A stretch of 38,769 nt of DNA from a virus: positions 1 to 38,769 of the IMG/VR virus record IMGVR_UViG_3300044715_000249; one strand, 5' to 3'. The notes below the pieces were generated by a model, which was not told the DNA's origin, searched no databases, and saw nothing but the letters and a program-made list of their open reading frames with translations. Within the stretch, counting starts at the first letter, position 1. Each line of letters starts with the position of its first letter. The position numbers and the translations under genes are program-made. Shown here piece after piece: positions 17,341 through 21,705 of the stretch.

Positions 17341-17819
17341 GCTGCCTTTTGTGTTTTAAGCACATGATGCAGTCTATCAGCGGCATAACTTGCGCACCAA
17401 GCATTTGGTTTAACCATTGGGATAACATTACAAGTACCGCGAATGTAACCTATTGCTTGTGTTACAACACAGCTACTACCATGTTCTTCGTTTGGGTTGA
17501 TGTCTAAGTGTACAGCAACATCACGACCTTCTAATACTTCGTGTAGTTTCAAGTACAGTTCTGAAATTTTGTACACTTCGTTCATTAGGCGCATACTCGG
17601 ACGATTACGTTTTTGGTCGTAGTCTACTTCTGTTGAACTTTCACCAAATATTTTACAGCCGTGTTTACCGTCAATGTGTACTACAATAGCCAAGGTGTAT
17701 TCTGCATGCCATTGACCGTTTAGACGAAAACGTGTGCTGTCACCACCAATGTAAATTTTAGTTGCATCACTTTGTGCATTGATAAAATCACGTACTTCAT
17801 TGAAATTCAGTTTTTTCAT
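17337..17819 (-). CDS. RNase H-like YkuK/DUF458 family protein
   Basis: 160 residues from the ATG at 17819 (MKKLNFNEVRD). It has the YkuK pattern: IYIGGDSTRF with an acidic residue, then EYTLAIVVHIDGKHG, GESSTEVDYD, VAVHLDINPNEEHGSS and KPNAWCASYAADR. The conserved Asp residues on three strands fit an RNase H-type fold; nuclease activity is predicted for the family, not proven here. It overlaps the preceding gene by 23 bases and ends a unit that starts with three tRNA genes. Confidence 0.85.
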   Translation of the reverse strand: MKKLNFNEVRDFINAQSDATKIYIGGDSTRFRLNGQWHAEYTLAIVVHIDGKHGCKIFGESSTEVDYDQKRNRPSMRLMNEVYKISELYLKLHEVLEGRDVAVHLDINPNEEHGSSCVVTQAIGYIRGTCNVIPMVKPNAWCASYAADRLHHVLKTQKAA

Positions 17820-18060
17820 ATTCAGATCCACGCTTTCTCAGTTCTTCTATTAGGCCACCGTAGGCAAAAGTGTACTGTTGTTCTAATCGTTCTAACATAT
17901 TAATGCAACTTATGATGTGTGCTGTATCCATGTCACTAATCAATAAGATTTTGCGTGTTTTAGTTAGCCACGTGGTACGATGCTGTCTACGGTACTCTTT
18001 AAAGTCCGCATAGTTAGGAGTACTTAATATATCCCAGGCTAATTGTTGTTCTTCATTCAT
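17797..18060 (-). CDS. Small hypothetical protein after tRNA cluster
   Basis: 87 residues from the ATG at 18060 (MNEEQQLAWDILSTPN). A longer frame up to 18195 runs through two tRNA genes and is rejected. Mixed helix/strand with a central hydrophobic strand (KTRKILLISDMDTAHIISC) and a charged end. It follows tRNA-Trp by 27 bases and overlaps the RNase H-like gene, so tRNAs and proteins may share one transcript. No family recognised. Confidence 0.65.
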   Translation of the reverse strand: MNEEQQLAWDILSTPNYADFKEYRRQHRTTWLTKTRKILLISDMDTAHIISCINMLERLEQQYTFAYGGLIEELRKRGSEYEKTEFQ

Positions 18061-18087
18061 TAGATTAATCTTACTGCTCAATAATAT

Positions 18088-18161
18088 TGGCTCCGGTGGA
18101 GAGAATCGAACTCCCACTAATGGTTTTGGAGACCATCGCACTGCCATTATACTACACCGGA
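18088..18161 (-). tRNA. tRNA-Trp (CCA)
   Basis: 74 bases including an encoded CCA. Acceptor TCCGGTG pairs with CACCGGA; the anticodon arm is ATGGT/CTCCAAA/ACCAT. The encoded CCA makes it independent of host CCA-adding enzyme. Confidence 0.95.
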
Positions 18162-18167
18162 ATAACT

Positions 18168-18259
18168 TGGCCGAAGAGGTGAGATTCGAACTCACGGTAC
18201 ATATTACTACGTACGACAGGTTAGCAACCTGCTGATTTCAGCCACTCATCCACTCTTCG
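18168..18259 (-). tRNA. tRNA-Ser (GCT)
   Basis: 92 bases with a long variable arm (CGTACGTAGTAATATGTACCG) typical of Ser tRNAs. Acceptor CGAAGAG pairs with CTCTTCG; anticodon loop TTGCTAA gives GCT, reading AGC and AGU. CCA is encoded. Confidence 0.95.
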
Positions 18260-18266
18260 TTATATT

Positions 18267-18354
18267 TGGCGGAAGTGGTAGGATTCGAACCCACGGACCC
18301 TTTCGGATCGACAGTTTAGTAAACTGCTGCTTTAGACCACTCAGCCACACTTCC
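18267..18354 (-). tRNA. tRNA-Ser with anticodon ACT (unusual)
   Basis: 88 bases, class II with a long variable arm (GATCCGAAAGGGTC) and encoded CCA. Acceptor GGAAGTG pairs with CACTTCC. The anticodon stem GCAGT/ACTGT closes a 7-base loop TTACTAA, so bases 34-36 are ACT. This is the first RNA after the promoter at 18366-18394. A34 in a Ser tRNA is very rare in bacteria; with a GCT isoacceptor next to it, an inosine or unmodified A would enlarge or sharpen AGN decoding. Confidence 0.9.
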
Positions 18355-18365
18355 ATTTAAAAACT

Positions 18366-18394
18366 ATTATAACACCGTTTAGTTACTGTGTCAA
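18366..18394 (-). promoter_or_regulatory. Consensus sigma-70 promoter for the Ser/Ser/Trp tRNA unit
   Basis: TTGACA (18389-18394), 17-base spacer, TATAAT (18366-18371), both perfect, about 5 bases before the 5' end of tRNA-Ser (ACT). Confidence 0.93.
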
Positions 18395-18427
18395 GTACTT
18401 ATCAGAGATAATAGTCAAACTTACCTG

Positions 18428-19459
18428 CTAAACATTGTGATTAAAATACTCACTAATTTGTTCTTGAATTTGATTAATATCTTTAAGATATTGTTGATGC
18501 AATCCATTCCAAAAATAATTATGATTATGTTCTAACACAGGTTTAATTTTTGTATACATTGAATTTAATGTTTCCTGTGATTGGTTAAAAAGATCAAGTA
18601 ATTGTTTAAGTAATAGCTCAAATCTTAGTTGAGGAACATCAACACTATCATAACTTTCATCAAATATAGAACTATATGTTTCAAATCCTAATTTTTTCAA
18701 TTCTGCTAGTGCACCAGCACTGCTAAACAATAACATCGGATGTCCGTATGCCAATGGTTTCATAGTTTTTTCTGTAAAAAATACATTATAGTTTTCATTT
18801 ATATATGTTTCATTGACAAAGGAACAAAAACTTTTTTCGTAATACTCAATGTTTCCCGGACCCCAATCATTATTAACAAAATTATCTATTTTATATGGTA
18901 ATTTTTGATAGGCCTGTTCCATATCTAAATCTAAGTTATACCATCGTTCACCATTGCCAATTGTATCGTTTAGAGTATTATATATAGTTTTACTATCGTT
19001 AACACCAAAACGATCCTGCATCAAATAACTAAAGTAACAGCGATCTAATAGATTAAATTTCAACATAAACTGATATAACGCTTGTCTCGGCCACGCGGCA
19101 CGATTGTTTAAACTTAATAATAGTTTTTCAAATGTTCTATCAAAATTAACCGGTACTTGCGGCATCTCTGTTGTATAGTATGCATAGGCCGATGGTATTT
19201 TAAAAAACTTGCAATCATAAGTTTGACTGAACTCTTCGGGATAATCTCTTGTGGTAACTATAGCAACTCGACAATGTTGATAGCGTTTTAACATGTTTTC
19301 AATTTGATCATTTCTAGTAGCTTCACCTAGACATGAATAAATTATATATTTTTTTGTTGAGCTACTATCATACATTCCATGATAATTACTAACCAAATCA
19401 ACCTGGTCTGATATCAACGTGTCGAGTTCCGGGTAAGGATTTGATTTTTTTGGATTCAT
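18428..19459 (-). CDS. GT10-like glycosyltransferase (paralogue 1 of 3)
   Basis: 343 residues. The C-terminal half carries FFTEKTMKPLAYGHPML (227-243), then GFETYSSIFDESYD (258-271). This matches the acceptor/donor lobe of fucosyltransferase-like GT10 proteins (E-K-x...L-x-G-x-P, then a G-F...F-D-ESYD). Two other genes (27242 and 31654) share this C-terminal block but diverge in the N-terminal lobe. No membrane segment. Base composition is more AT-rich than the neighbouring tRNAs, and the gene sits alone between RNA genes, suggesting an insertion. Confidence 0.75.
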   Translation of the reverse strand: MNPKKSNPYPELDTLISDQVDLVSNYHGMYDSSSTKKYIIYSCLGEATRNDQIENMLKRYQHCRVAIVTTRDYPEEFSQTYDCKFFKIPSAYAYYTTEMPQVPVNFDRTFEKLLLSLNNRAAWPRQALYQFMLKFNLLDRCYFSYLMQDRFGVNDSKTIYNTLNDTIGNGERWYNLDLDMEQAYQKLPYKIDNFVNNDWGPGNIEYYEKSFCSFVNETYINENYNVFFTEKTMKPLAYGHPMLLFSSAGALAELKKLGFETYSSIFDESYDSVDVPQLRFELLLKQLLDLFNQSQETLNSMYTKIKPVLEHNHNYFWNGLHQQYLKDINQIQEQISEYFNHNV

Positions 19460-19678
19460 ATAATAGTCTTAGTGTAAGTATTCTGCTACTAGCACCACCT
19501 AGCCCAGAACTGAGTAGTTACCCTGTCCAACTGTTTACTTGTGGATGTAACAGTAAAACAACCTAGGATATTCTCAAGTCGCTCATATAGTGAGCCTTGC
19601 AGTAGATCTTACGCACTGTGCCTTTATGGTATCGGCAATTTACCCACTTTCATAAAGACAAAGTGTAACCCTAGTGTC
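19460..19678 (-). other. Noncoding leader or RNA region with hairpins
   Basis: 219 bases between tRNA-Gly and the glycosyltransferase. No frame longer than about ten codons begins here on the minus strand. Hairpins visible: GCTCA-TATAG-TGAGC near 19580-19596, CCTAG/CTAGG pairing across 19496-19565, and an ACTGTT/AACAGT pairing around 19530-19555. It may be a processed 3' trailer of the tRNA transcript or a leader of the glycosyltransferase mRNA. No promoter found in it. Confidence 0.4.
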
Positions 19679-19752
19679 TGGAGCGGGATAAGGGGATCGA
19701 ACCCTCGCTAAAAGTTTGGAAAACTCTTGTGCTACCATTACACCAATCCCGC
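19679..19752 (-). tRNA. tRNA-Gly (TCC)
   Basis: 74 bases with CCA. Acceptor GCGGGAT pairs with ATCCCGC; anticodon stem AGAGT/ACTTT (one G-T pair) closes loop TTTCCAA, anticodon TCC. Confidence 0.95.
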
Positions 19753-19755
19753 GAT

Positions 19756-19831
19756 TGGTACTCCCAAGGGAATTCGAATCCCTGTTACCTGCGTGAAAGG
19801 CGGGTGTCCTAGGCCTCTAGACGATGGGAGC
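19756..19831 (-). tRNA. tRNA-Glu (TTC) with a mispaired anticodon stem
   Basis: 76 bases with CCA; acceptor GCTCCCA/TGGGAGT (G1-T72 wobble). The anticodon loop CTTTCAC carries TTC. The stem CCCGC/GCAGG has a C-A mismatch at the middle pair (29-41), which bacterial tRNA-Glu normally lacks. The D-arm GTCTAGAGGCCTAGGAC is close to the standard tRNA-Glu. Confidence 0.93.
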
Positions 19832-19837
19832 CTAAAC

Positions 19838-19913
19838 TGGTGCCGCCAGAAGGAGTTGAACCCTCGACCCACGGATTACAAATCCGTTGCTCTACCAACT
19901 GAGCTATAGCGGC
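19838..19913 (-). tRNA. tRNA-Thr (TGT)
   Basis: 76 bases with CCA. Acceptor GCCGCTA/TGGCGGC; D-arm GCTCAGTTGGTAGAGC; anticodon arm ACGGA/TTTGTAA/TCCGT gives TGT. Confidence 0.95.
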
Positions 19914-19922
19914 TTAAAACTT

Positions 19923-20084
19923 TTACTTACGTGCTTCTAATATTCTAATACGACTACGGATCTTTGCTTGATCCTTTTTCTTACTAGTCTTTTCTAACAT
20001 GGTATTTAATTGTGTTAGGTTCAATGGACCTAAACGTGGTTTACCCGTGCGTGTCTGCATTGGATTTGCTTTTTTCACTGCCAT
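19923..20084 (-). CDS. Small basic conserved phage protein between tRNAs (53 aa)
   Basis: 53 residues from the ATG at 20084 with AGGAGAAG 4 bases upstream. The N-terminus is basic (MAVKKANPMQTRTGKPR), followed by LGPLNLTQLNTMLEKTSKKK and AKIRSRIRILEARK. I recall a very similar small protein in T4-like marine phages. It lies between tRNA-Met and tRNA-Thr in the same transcript. The high basic content suggests RNA or DNA binding; function unknown. Confidence 0.8.
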   Translation of the reverse strand: MAVKKANPMQTRTGKPRLGPLNLTQLNTMLEKTSKKKDQAKIRSRIRILEARK

Positions 20085-20100
20085 GTTACTTCTCCTGTGT

Positions 20101-20175
20101 TGGTTGCGGAGGACGGATTCGAACCGCCGATCTACAGGTTATGAGCCTGTCGGGTTGCCACTTCCCCACCCCGCG
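20101..20175 (-). tRNA. tRNA-Met (CAT) with initiator-like C1-A72 mismatch
   Basis: 75 bases with CCA. 5' CGCGGGG faces 3' CCTCCGCA, leaving a C1-A72 mismatch, the formylation determinant of initiator tRNAs. Anticodon loop CTCATAA. The anticodon stem is ACAGG/CCTGT, so only two of the three G-C pairs typical of initiators are present, and the D-stem ends in an A-A mismatch. Most likely an initiator-type tRNA that has drifted. Confidence 0.88.
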
Positions 20176-20344
20176 ATAAAAGTTCTGCGGCCAGTACAGG
20201 CCTGTTATCATGTGCAGAATCATGACTGATTTCAACGGTGGAGTTTCACCACAGGCATCAGCTACCCTTGGACGGTTTGCCGTACTCTCCTAACCTCGAA
20301 TACATATTGTTACGGCTTTCTTCCATTTACTTATTTGTTACTAT
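20176..20344 (-). ncRNA. Candidate structured RNA between promoter and tRNA-Met
   Basis: About 170 bases from a predicted transcription start near 20344. Visible hairpins on the minus strand: ACGG-CAAA-CCGT (20272-20283), GGTG-AAACTC-CACC (20237-20250) inside a CTGAT/ATCAG stem (20226-20261), and TTCTGC/GCAGAA (20183-20218) enclosing GGCC-AGTACA-GGCC. A 22-codon reading frame from ATG at 20326 has no clear ribosome-binding site. I match it to no RNA family. Confidence 0.45.
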
Positions 20345-20350
20345 CTATAT

Positions 20351-20379
20351 AGTGTAGCATTTTTGATATACGATGTCAA
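20351..20379 (-). promoter_or_regulatory. Sigma-70 promoter of the Met/Thr/Glu/Gly tRNA unit
   Basis: TTGACA (20374-20379), 17-base spacer, TACACT (20351-20356). It lies between the tRNA-like remnant and the candidate structured RNA and would transcribe the four tRNAs and the 53-residue gene. Confidence 0.85.
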
Positions 20380-20388
20380 CTATTATTT

Positions 20389-20470
20389 TGGCGACTCGAC
20401 GGAGAATCGAACCCAACAAGTTGCGATCTTGACCTAGCATGGCTAGGCTCCTGGCCCAACAGGACTATCT
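20389..20470 (-). pseudogene. Degenerate tRNA-like element with CCA end
   Basis: Reads as a tRNA 3' half: T-loop TTCGATT, a 7-base 3' acceptor strand TCGAGTC, then G and CCA. Upstream are a D-like arm (CCTG-TTGGGC-CAGG), an arm with CAT in its loop (CCTAGC-CAT-GCTAGG) and a variable-arm-like hairpin (CAAG-ATCGCAA-CTTG). No 5' strand pairs with the acceptor and the T-stem is mispaired. It may be a decayed class II tRNA or a non-tRNA RNA with a tRNA-like 3' end. Confidence 0.45.
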
Positions 20471-20690
20471 ACAAACTGTTAACGCATTCTTGCGAATGCG
20501 TATAATAAAGTACACTAATTACTCACCTAAGACATCGTCCACTTTTACTCTGGGTGGGACCTAGTTGCCGACTAATGTACTTTATTATAACAAGTATTTT
20601 CTGTCCACAAAAGAACATGCCATCCACTTGTCCGCCCGTTTACAAACTATCTTTAATGTGCCTTGTTGGACCTCGTTTCCGAGACACATA
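20471..20690 (-). ncRNA. Candidate noncoding RNA modules with repeat and inverted repeat
   Basis: 220 bases without a credible reading frame. It contains a perfect 8-bp hairpin with a GNRA loop (ACGCATTC-GCAA-GAATGCGT, 20482-20501), a perfect 13-bp inverted repeat (20501-20513 with 20577-20589) and a 17-base motif present twice (20554-20570 and 20665-20681, 14 of 17 identical). The second motif copy forms CTCG-GAAA-CGAG inside an ATGTG/CACAT stem. TACAAACT also recurs (20470-20477 and 20641-20648). Two related modules thus stand in tandem. Confidence 0.5.
20584..20612 (-). promoter_or_regulatory. Possible extended -10 promoter inside the noncoding region
   Basis: TGTTATAAT on the minus strand (TATAAT at 20584-20589 with an upstream TG). 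The -35 position (20607-20612) is only TTTTGT. The -10 is part of the 13-bp inverted repeat, so folding or strand opening and initiation could be linked. Confidence 0.45.
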
Positions 20691-20727
20691 AAACAAAAAA
20701 CCCTAGTAACATTTCTGCTCTAGGGTT
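20691..20727 (-). terminator. Rho-independent terminator
   Basis: AACCCTAG (20720-20727) pairs with CTAGGGTT (20699-20706), followed on the minus strand by TTTTTTG. It ends the one-gene unit of the 43-residue peptide. Confidence 0.9.
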
Positions 20728-20761
20728 CTTAATTAAAATTAACTTATATTATATATAAACT

Positions 20762-20893
20762 CTAATTAAGATCCCCATAGATACTATTCGGTGTGCGATC
20801 ATTGCCTAATGTCTCAATCGCTGACCAATAAGACATCGTAGCAAGTGCGCAGACTTGTTTCGATATTTTAAATTGATGTAGCTGGTTAAACAT
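20762..20893 (-). CDS. 43-residue peptide in its own transcription unit
   Basis: 43 residues from the ATG at 20893 (MFNQLHQFKISKQVCALATM, then SYWSAIETLGNDRTPNSIYG). AAAGGA lies about 12 bases upstream, rather far. A consensus-type promoter (20937-20965) and a strong terminator (20691-20727) flank it, so it is a complete single-gene unit. No membrane segment and no family recognised. If it is not translated, the transcript would be a small RNA of about 230 bases. Confidence 0.55.
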   Translation of the reverse strand: MFNQLHQFKISKQVCALATMSYWSAIETLGNDRTPNSIYGDLN

Positions 20894-20936
20894 TTTGCTT
20901 TCGCATTCCTTTAATTAATTTGTTACTATAACAACA

Positions 20937-20965
20937 AGTATACAGTCTATTTAATAACCTGTCAA
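20937..20965 (-). promoter_or_regulatory. Sigma-70 promoter
   Basis: TTGACA (20960-20965), 17-base spacer, TATACT (20937-20942). It drives the 43-residue peptide unit. Confidence 0.92.
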
Positions 20966-20979
20966 TCTGTTTGTTAATT

Positions 20980-20986
20980 TATTTAT
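20980..20986 (-). promoter_or_regulatory. Possible late promoter motif
   Basis: ATAAATA in the context AGATAAATAAAT, just upstream of the sigma-70 promoter of the 43-residue unit. AT-rich context makes chance occurrence likely. Confidence 0.25.
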
Positions 20987-21018
20987 CTTTTATTTTTGAT
21001 ACGATGTAATATATACAC

Positions 21019-21216
21019 TTATTCGCCAATTATATCAATTCCAGCAGTGCCAAGTTCAGTTACTGCTTCAACTGCGGCTTTTTTCTTTGGTGCACCCCAG
21101 AAGTTAGTTGTTGCTGTTTCACTTTGTACACCACGAGCTATTTGTTGTATCTGGCCACCATTGGCTAAAAACTCTGCCATTACTTGTTCATAATCGTATT
21201 CATTTATATCTGACAT
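21019..21216 (-). CDS. Small conserved phage protein (65 aa)
   Basis: 65 residues from the ATG at 21216 with AAGGAT upstream. Two parts: an acidic helix (YDYEQVMAEFLANGGQIQQI) and a FWGAPKKKAA segment. I recall small proteins with an 'EFLANGG...WGAPKKK' plan in T4-like marine phages; their function is not known. It lies 23 bases after tRNA-Arg and shares its transcript with the omega-like gene and the tRNAs. Confidence 0.8.
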   Translation of the reverse strand: MSDINEYDYEQVMAEFLANGGQIQQIARGVQSETATTNFWGAPKKKAAVEAVTELGTAGIDIIGE

Positions 21217-21239
21217 CTTATATCCTTATGTTATATTAC

Positions 21240-21314
21240 TGGTCCGGCGTGAGGGAATCGAACCCCCAACTAGGGAGTAGAAATCCCCTGTTATATCCAT
21301 TTAACTAACACCGG
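21240..21314 (-). tRNA. tRNA-Arg (TCT)
   Basis: 75 bases with CCA. Acceptor CCGGTGT/ACGCCGG with one T-G pair; D-arm GTTA/TAAC; anticodon stem GGGGA/TCCCT around TTTCTAC gives TCT, reading AGA/AGG, codons often scarce in hosts. Confidence 0.94.
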
Positions 21315-21320
21315 AGTGTT

Positions 21321-21397
21321 TGGTGGGCCTTACTGGACTTGAACCAGTGACATTCCGATTATGAGTCGGACGCTCTAACCAACTGAGCTAAAGGCCC
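21321..21397 (-). tRNA. tRNA with CAT anticodon, probably tRNA-Ile2 (lysidine type)
   Basis: 77 bases with CCA. Acceptor GGGCCTT/AAGGCCC; loop CTCATAA. The anticodon stem CCGA/TCGG and the T-arm region CACTGGTTCAAGTCCAG resemble tRNA-Ile2 of proteobacteria more than elongator Met. If so, host TilS would convert C34 to lysidine so that it reads AUA. Confidence 0.85.
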
Positions 21398-21404
21398 AAA
21401 TAAA

Positions 21405-21674
21405 TTATTGCCTAATTTGTTTGCCGACTTTAGTTAAGTATTCTACACCACAGGTACCTGCTTCGACATCTAGCAAGGCCTGCACAGTAGGAAGATTTTC
21501 ATATTTAGGTTGCGCTGTAGTTGATCCTGCATTGCGGGCGGCAATAACACGTGTTTTTGCAATTTCGTGTCCGCGCACACCTGCGGCTAAAATTAACTGG
21601 AATCGATTGCCACTGAATACGGCATCACAGTTATCAATGTTATATTTTTCAACTGACGCTATCTTTTTTGACAT
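21405..21674 (-). CDS. RNA polymerase omega-subunit-like protein
   Basis: 89 residues. Residues 23-38 (NRFQLILAAGVRGHEI) match the core omega/RpoZ helix, in which N-R-F/Y...A-A...R...I contacts the beta' subunit. A basic TRVIAARNAG follows. Bacterial omega is about 80-90 residues, so the length fits. The C-terminus (TVQALLDVEAGTCGVEYL) differs from host omega and has a cysteine. The gene is the first of the unit under a perfect sigma-70 promoter, followed by tRNAs. It may replace or compete with host omega during takeover; the direction of effect is inference. Confidence 0.65.
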   Translation of the reverse strand: MSKKIASVEKYNIDNCDAVFSGNRFQLILAAGVRGHEIAKTRVIAARNAGSTTAQPKYENLPTVQALLDVEAGTCGVEYLTKVGKQIRQ

Positions 21675-21705
21675 AGTATGTACCTAAGTTATTATTTAAA
21701 ATACT

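What the first reader, a model, noticed from the sequence alone, without database searches (positions are those of the whole stretch)
19460..20990. RNA island of nine tRNAs, tiny genes and unassigned structured noncoding DNA
Between 19460 and 20990 there are at least 800 bases with no credible protein gene on either strand, yet full of hairpins, promoters and a terminator. It sits amid tRNA genes, as expected for a locus of small RNAs. None of the structures fits a tmRNA, RNase P or other family I know. Phage RNA genes of this kind may control host translation or RNA decay. This is the best candidate for an undescribed system in the window.
Basis: partly seen in the sequence, partly recalled or inferred. 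Interest (0 to 1): 0.78.

Follow-up and report, generated by a model that had tools for sequence, protein, structure and literature searches.

The report
Three new phage tRNA-array RNAs
Between the tRNA genes of this phage lie three folded RNAs that match no family in the RNA library searched, and related environmental phages carry them among their own tRNA genes, which makes them good candidates for phage RNA genes of unknown function.

Summary
In detail: 19460-20990 keeps about 936 of 1531 bases outside tRNAs and two small ORFs. The stretch resolves into three separate conserved structured RNAs on the minus strand: A (20690-20478), C (about 20344-20178, with a 61-nt core at 20327-20267) and B (19678-19471). 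Between A and C lies a tRNA remnant fused by a deletion (20473-20388). Relatives show compensatory base changes in all three; C has a pseudoknot whose covariation rests on one lineage. None reaches an Rfam 15 family. Covariance models recover them in other environmental viral contigs, C and B usually once per contig (contigs up to 329 and 338 kb), inside tRNA arrays. B starts 0-5 nt after a tRNA in 19 of 22 rows, with differing neighbours. Six cultured large phages gave no convincing match. My best explanation: RNAs released from the tRNA-array transcript by tRNA processing and acting in trans. Transcription, processing and function are inferred, not shown. The nearest known things, GOLLD and ROOL, are also phage RNAs near tRNA islands but far longer and not matched.

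The parts
20478..20690 (-). RNA A, about 210 nt: P1 with an inner hairpin (loop AACGAGR), two nested hairpin stems, a long A/U-rich stem (about 20589-20502) with an exchangeable apical part, and a 3' hairpin (20501-20482)
   Evidence: 17 rows, 44 pairs, 15 with changes on both sides; score 0.215, shuffles 0.108 +/- 0.008, slid at most 0.048; relatives
20267..20327 (-). core of RNA C: P1, P2 and a pseudoknot between loop GGUU and AACC
   Evidence: 27 rows, 12 of 15 pairs with changes on both sides; score 0.434, shuffles 0.173 +/- 0.017, slid at most 0.088; but 'further pair types' 17 against 16.5 is no better than shuffles; model R1 gives 79.4 bits here
20178..20266 (-). second domain of RNA C, up to the tRNA-Met; other contigs have other or no second domains after the core
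   Evidence: alignments and printed flanks; no structure counted
20351..20379 (-). promoter-like site before C, TTGACA-17-TACACT
   Evidence: kept in the W-type relatives aligned
19471..19678 (-). RNA B, about 200 nt, starting directly after the CCA end of tRNA-Gly
   Evidence: 17 rows, 13 of 28 pairs with changes on both sides; score 0.414, shuffles 0.183 +/- 0.014, slid at most 0.080; relatives
20388..20473 (-). chimeric tRNA remnant: 5' part of a class-II tRNA-like gene joined in the T arm to the 3' end of tRNA-Asp
   Evidence: query bases 1-82 identical to L094, bases 74-98 identical to the tRNA-Asp ends of L005 and L018 (tRNA places)
20690..20728 (-). intrinsic terminator after the 43-codon ORF and just before A
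   Evidence: read from the sequence, kept in the relatives; not listed by the scan
20937..20965 (-). promoter-like site, TTGACA-17-TATACT, before the 43-codon ORF
20762..20893 (-). 43-codon ORF, frame kept in relatives
19923..20084 (-). 53-codon ORF under codon-type constraint
   Evidence: 8 relatives: 92 third-, 22 second-, 50 first-position differences
19679..19752 (-). tRNA-Gly(tcc)
19756..19831 (-). tRNA-Glu(ttc)
19838..19913 (-). tRNA-Thr(tgt)
20101..20175 (-). tRNA-Met(cat), initiator-like by its C1/A72 mismatch (initiator hallmark recalled)

Best explanation
A, B and C are three noncoding RNA genes carried as members of the phage tRNA array. Proposed working: they are transcribed with the tRNAs (C also from a promoter of its own in phages of the window's type); the host's tRNA-processing enzymes cut the transcript after the CCA end of the tRNA before them and at the 5' end of the tRNA after them; the released folded RNAs are stable and act in trans, most likely on the host's translation or RNA-handling machinery while the phage works with its own tRNAs. 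Shown here: conserved structure with compensatory changes; usually one copy per contig; B flush against tRNAs; A and some C copies flush against the tRNA that follows; neighbours that change. Inferred: transcription, cutting, stability, action in trans, and the target.
For: Compensatory pairs well above slid controls in all three. C core once in 24 of the 26 records with a match, 2 and 3 copies in the other two, of 37 records searched whole; B found in G002, a 338-kb record not used for its model, at 127.6 bits between tRNA-Gly and tRNA-Met. B begins 0-5 nt after a tRNA in 19 of 22 rows that reach its start, two of the 19 being truncated copies (L049, L018), and its neighbours include Gly/Ala, Met/Glu, Ser/Arg and Gly/Val. 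The three are interleaved with long tRNA arrays. A single copy in a long array and changing neighbours speak against a general processing signal or a control element for one tRNA.
Against: No transcript data. C is followed by tRNA-Ser in 20 of 30 distinct copies and tRNA-Met in 7, and A by tRNA-Pro in 20 of 24 rows, steadier than a free trans-acting gene needs. B is followed by a tRNA within 12 nt in only 13 of the 25 rows that reach its end; in the window a protein gene follows. No rRNA complementarity. Six cultured large phages lack convincing matches. Shuffle controls ignore relatedness, and the structures of A and B came from the alignments on which they were counted.
Confidence: 0.5

Rival explanations
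1. Cis-acting leader, attenuation or processing elements: C tunes the tRNA-Ser or tRNA-Met that follows, A the head of the array (tRNA-Pro).
For: Next tRNA after the C core is Ser in 20 of 30 and Met in 7 of 30 copies; A is followed by tRNA-Pro in 20 of 24 rows, 11 of them within 4-5 nt; C has a promoter of its own in the window type.
Against: B has many different neighbours; one copy per array of 20 or more tRNAs is too few for a general signal; the distance from the C core to the next tRNA runs from 2 to over 900 nt.
Confidence: 0.27
2. The C core is a small self-cleaving ribozyme that trims the array transcript.
For: A compact 61-nt pseudoknot with invariant unpaired segments and fixed loop length, close to tRNA 5' ends in some copies.
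Against: No match to the ribozyme families of Rfam; the distance to the tRNA is not fixed.
Confidence: 0.07
3. A, B and C are pieces of one large split RNA of the GOLLD or ROOL sort with tRNAs in its linkers.
For: GOLLD can hold tRNAs in its linker region (PMC12286853, passage); the three occur together in 15 of 37 records, B only in part in one of them.
Against: Order and spacing change: B lies before C in L043, L045 (second C copy), L072, L083, L058 and L094 but after C in the window type; no Rfam match in five loci with copies; covariation between the three was not tested.
Confidence: 0.06
4. DNA-level elements, such as inverted repeats for recombination, not RNAs.
For: A's long stem is a DNA inverted repeat; the array recombines (deletion fusion).
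Against: Compensatory changes in branched helices, G-U pairs and a pseudoknot.
Confidence: 0.04

Closest known systems
GOLLD RNA
   Same: Structured noncoding RNA of unknown function encoded in phages and prophages, often near tRNA islands, with tRNAs sometimes in its linker (PMC12286853, passages seen)
   Different: Many members exceed 800 nt (same passages); A, B and C are about 200 nt or less, are separate elements, and do not match its Rfam model in the window or in five related loci
ROOL RNA
   Same: Phage and prophage RNA, often near tRNA islands, rich in pseudoknots, function unknown
   Different: A 659-nt example is described there; no Rfam match here
PhiKZ ncRNAs
   Same: Noncoding RNAs of about 100 and 180 nt made by a large phage and seen on Northern blots (PMC8545117, abstract and passages seen)
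   Different: They come from untranslated regions of protein genes, not from a tRNA array; no sequence compared
RNA C and RNA D (species 1 and 2) of the phage T4 tRNA cluster
   Same: Stable non-tRNA RNAs cut from a phage tRNA transcript, function unknown (recalled, from no call)
   Different: No T4 sequence was compared directly; blastn of A, B and C against the phage collection gave no match for A and one weak match each for B and C in other phages

Membership tests
GOLLD / ROOL | match to the family's covariance model | tested here: not met
   Rfam 15 at gathering over the window and five related loci, and E up to 10 over 17800-21700, gave no such match
GOLLD / ROOL | length of several hundred nt as one RNA | tested here: not met
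   A, B and C are separate blocks of about 210, 200 and 170 nt, placed differently in different contigs; transcript length itself not measured
GOLLD / ROOL | location near phage tRNA islands | tested here: met
GOLLD / ROOL | homo-oligomeric cage | not testable with these tools
   needs cryo-EM
tmRNA | tRNA-like ends with a tag reading frame | tested here: not met
   ARAGORN, which also looks for tmRNA, lists nine tRNAs and no tmRNA; no Rfam match
RNase P RNA | match to an Rfam RNase P model | tested here: not met
self-cleaving ribozyme | match to a known ribozyme family | tested here: not met
self-cleaving ribozyme | self-cleavage | not testable with these tools
   needs an in vitro assay
tRNA (the stretch 20388-20473) | closed acceptor stem and cloverleaf | tested here: not met
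   not listed by ARAGORN or Rfam; halves of two different tRNA genes
T4 RNA C and D | sequence or structure similarity to those RNAs | not tested
   their sequences were not fetched; the family itself is recalled

The most novel reading that the evidence does not exclude
Phages of this group carry a nearly complete translation kit: tRNAs for most amino acids plus three dedicated RNAs, A, B and C, which together take over or protect translation or tRNA metabolism in the dying host. That would be a set of phage RNA parts for the translation machinery beyond tRNAs.
Probability: 0.15. Interest if true: 0.85.

Novelty: new variant of a known kind. Interest (0 to 1): 0.62.

Why it matters
Phage tRNA arrays are common, but what else is made from them is little known. 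Three covarying RNA families, one with a 61-nt pseudoknot core, give models that can be searched elsewhere and probes and deletions that can be made in any cultured phage found to carry them. They turn the question of what the non-tRNA RNAs of tRNA islands do into one that can be tested.

Tried and rejected
Rejected: tmRNA, RNase P and known ribozymes; one large GOLLD-like RNA; the tRNA-like stretch 20473-20388 as an exotic tRNA (a deletion fusion); the 43-codon ORF as a fourth RNA (frame kept and length changes in threes, although its codon signal is weak: 34 silent against 53 changed codons); an rRNA-complementary decoy (of 16 tests the best was 8 bases of A to 16S, reached by 4 of 60 shuffles; one of those bases covaries within A).

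Led nowhere: blastn of the three in the phage collection (no match for A; one match each for B, E 0.2, and C, E 0.05, not followed up); the C pattern in genome contigs (4 stretches; by eye none has the stem or the second pseudoknot strand; model R1 scores three of the four at E 0.045 to 3.2 through part of the motif); models R1, R2 and R3 on PA5oct, Atu_ph07, Phosso, Vibrio 2.275.O, Salmonella SD-1_S14 and Aeromonas 65 (the only matches, E 0.20 for R1 and 0.38 for R3, are both in Aeromonas 65; scored with stricter filters). Paper searches: in the titles and abstract starts listed I saw no description of these RNAs. The library holds open-licence papers only, and a 2017 survey of structured RNAs whose DOI I recalled is not held.

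Limits and dropped rows: shuffles ignore relatedness; structures of A and B came from the alignments counted. The 37 records were chosen from loci I held, so their shares do not tell how common the RNAs are. Hosts and habitats are not told by the tools. Dropped before counts: identical copies; copies over 97% identical (which set the rows of A6 and A7); truncated copies (A6, A7); the chance hit L108. L014 was added to A4 by hand although the script's AACC-type check failed for it, because its pseudoknot strand is changed; the pseudoknot's covariation rests on that row. One search showed 150 of 214 matches, all tRNA; the other 64 were not seen, so five loci were repeated (92 of 92 tRNA).

Full report
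What is there. The window is a virus record of 38,769 bases. Its large terminase is about 53% identical to that of PA5oct and relatives, 50% to those of Phosso and Atu_ph07. The interval 19460-20990 is part of a minus-strand array: nine tRNAs at 18088-21397, four inside the interval. About 936 of 1531 bases lie outside tRNAs and two small ORFs. Rfam gives tRNAs only at gathering scores and ten sub-threshold matches besides at E up to 10.

Relatives split the stretch. The 65-codon ORF at 21216-21019 and the 343-codon ORF at 19459-18428 led to 23 and 14 loci in viral contigs. Comparison showed three noncoding blocks conserved apart from each other, all to be read on the minus strand. A lies after a terminator and, in relatives, before tRNA-Pro; C lies between a promoter and tRNA-Met(cat); B directly follows tRNA-Gly. 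Exact patterns found 17 stretches for A, 16 for C, 30 for B and 40 for the centre of the C core; a looser C pattern found 49. That looser pattern in one genome for each of 84,980 prokaryote species gave 4 stretches, by eye none with the stem.

Structure. C core: 27 distinct copies (alignment A4). With P1 + P2 + pseudoknot, 94.3% of cells pair and 12 of 15 pairs have changes on both sides; the covariation score is 0.434 against 0.173 +/- 0.017 in shuffles and at most 0.088 with partners slid. The number of further pair types, 17 against 16.5, does not exceed shuffles. The pseudoknot pairs loop GGUU with AACC; only the L014 type differs, GGGA with UCCC, so its covariation is one event in one lineage. 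B: 17 copies (A6), 13 of 28 pairs, score 0.414 against at most 0.080 slid; 4 of 500 shuffles reached the number of double-changed pairs and 9 of 500 the number of types. A: 17 copies (A7), 15 of 44 pairs, 0.215 against at most 0.048 slid. The apical part of A's long stem differs wholly in L020/L080, L086, L083 and L078 while its base is kept. In a scan over all column pairs of A the top pair joins the R of loop AACGAGR to a later Y (G-C 11, A-U 5, C-G 1), perhaps a tertiary contact; many lower pairs in that scan are plainly lineage noise.

Distribution. I searched whole the 37 records behind loci that I held. C core: 26 of 37 at E up to 0.01, one copy in 24 of them, two in G015 and three in G016. 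B: 27 of 37 at E up to 0.01, of which 23 are strong, one partial (G018, E 1.3e-9) and three weak (E 0.001-0.0025), which I do not count as real; G008 has a second weak match. Three strong records, G002, G008 and G032, gave no row to the model; how close their copies are to rows used was looked at only for G002, where B scores 127.6 bits and lies between tRNA-Gly and tRNA-Met. A: 20 of 37, 18 of them at E 3.5e-12 or better, two weak (G035, G002); the model also gives weak matches on the opposite strand because the long stem is palindromic. All three: 15 of 37, B partial in one. Six cultured large phages gave no convincing match.

Neighbours. B begins 0-5 nt after a tRNA in 19 of 22 rows that reach its start (two of the 19 truncated) and is followed by a tRNA within 12 nt in 13 of 25 rows that reach its end; neighbours include Gly/Ala, Met/Glu, Ser/Arg and Gly/Val. 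After the C core the next tRNA is Ser in 20 of 30 distinct copies, Met in 7, Leu in 1, none within the locus in 2, at 2 to over 900 nt. A is followed by tRNA-Pro in 20 of 24 rows, within 4-5 nt in 11. In L026 the array reads Met Arg [A] Pro Tyr Lys His Asp Trp [C] Met Thr Glu Leu Leu Gly [B] Ala Asn Ile Ser Ser Thr Gln Cys Met Arg Gly His. In the window a deletion joined a class-II tRNA-like gene to tRNA-Asp through a T-arm sequence that both share, so Pro, Tyr, Lys, His and an intact Asp are absent there, and Trp stands at the far end.

Reading. Elements that keep sequence and structure, occur usually once, and lie flush with tRNA genes whose identity changes look like RNA genes of the array that tRNA processing cuts out. 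Structure I take as nearly certain, cutting from the array as likely, action in trans and its target as inference. Cis roles remain possible, most of all for C and A with their steady next tRNAs. A test for complementarity to E. coli rRNA was negative.

Known kinds. GOLLD and ROOL are phage RNAs near tRNA islands with unknown function (PMC12286853, passages), but much longer and not matched here. PhiKZ makes two noncoding RNAs from untranslated regions (PMC8545117, abstract and passages). The T4 omics paper (PMC9697503, passages) gave nothing on RNA C and D, which I cite from memory. I file A, B and C in none of these families: the same broad kind of thing, as three new small families.

Noticed in passing
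window 20388-20473 (-): A tRNA remnant made by a deletion between the T arms of a class-II tRNA-like gene and tRNA-Asp; relatives keep Pro, Tyr, Lys, His, Asp in between.
   Followed up: yes
L010 5571-5653; also L007 and L094 after element A: A class-II tRNA-like gene with a long variable arm; ARAGORN calls it Met(cat) in L010, while in L007 and L094 the anticodon loop reads GCCATGC without the usual T33 and it is not called.
   Followed up: partly
L054, L045 (4150-4400), L043, L072, L093, L100: Other conserved stretches flank C cores near tRNA-Ser: a module before the core and a long one after it (CCAGACCTCAA...GGTTTGTTAGGTTCC), possibly further structured RNAs.
   Followed up: no
L089, L091, L098: A different second domain after the C core, about 90-110 nt, so the core seems to be combined with exchangeable partners.
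   Followed up: no
window 20101-20175 (-): The tRNA-Met right after C has a C1/A72 mismatch, the hallmark of initiator tRNA (recalled); the array may supply an initiator tRNA.
   Followed up: no
window 19923-20084 (-): Basic 53-codon ORF between tRNA-Thr and tRNA-Met, conserved with codon-type constraint in 8 relatives; no PHROGs match.
   Followed up: partly
window 20762-20893 (-): 43-codon ORF with conserved SYWSAIE...DR(T/A)P, a promoter before it and a terminator after it; no PHROGs match.
   Followed up: partly
L004, L005, L007, L009, L010, L012, L013, L017, between terminator and A: Extra small ORF (MDKK..., coiled-coil-like by eye), absent from the window, L014, L018 and L020 in the alignment.
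   Followed up: no
alignment A7, columns about 128-186: The top of A's long stem is replaced by unrelated sequence in several phages, as if domains were swapped.
   Followed up: partly
G036 44010-44212, G021 138319-138469: Remote matches to the A model (E 3.5e-17 and 3.5e-12) in other large contigs; not examined.
   Followed up: no
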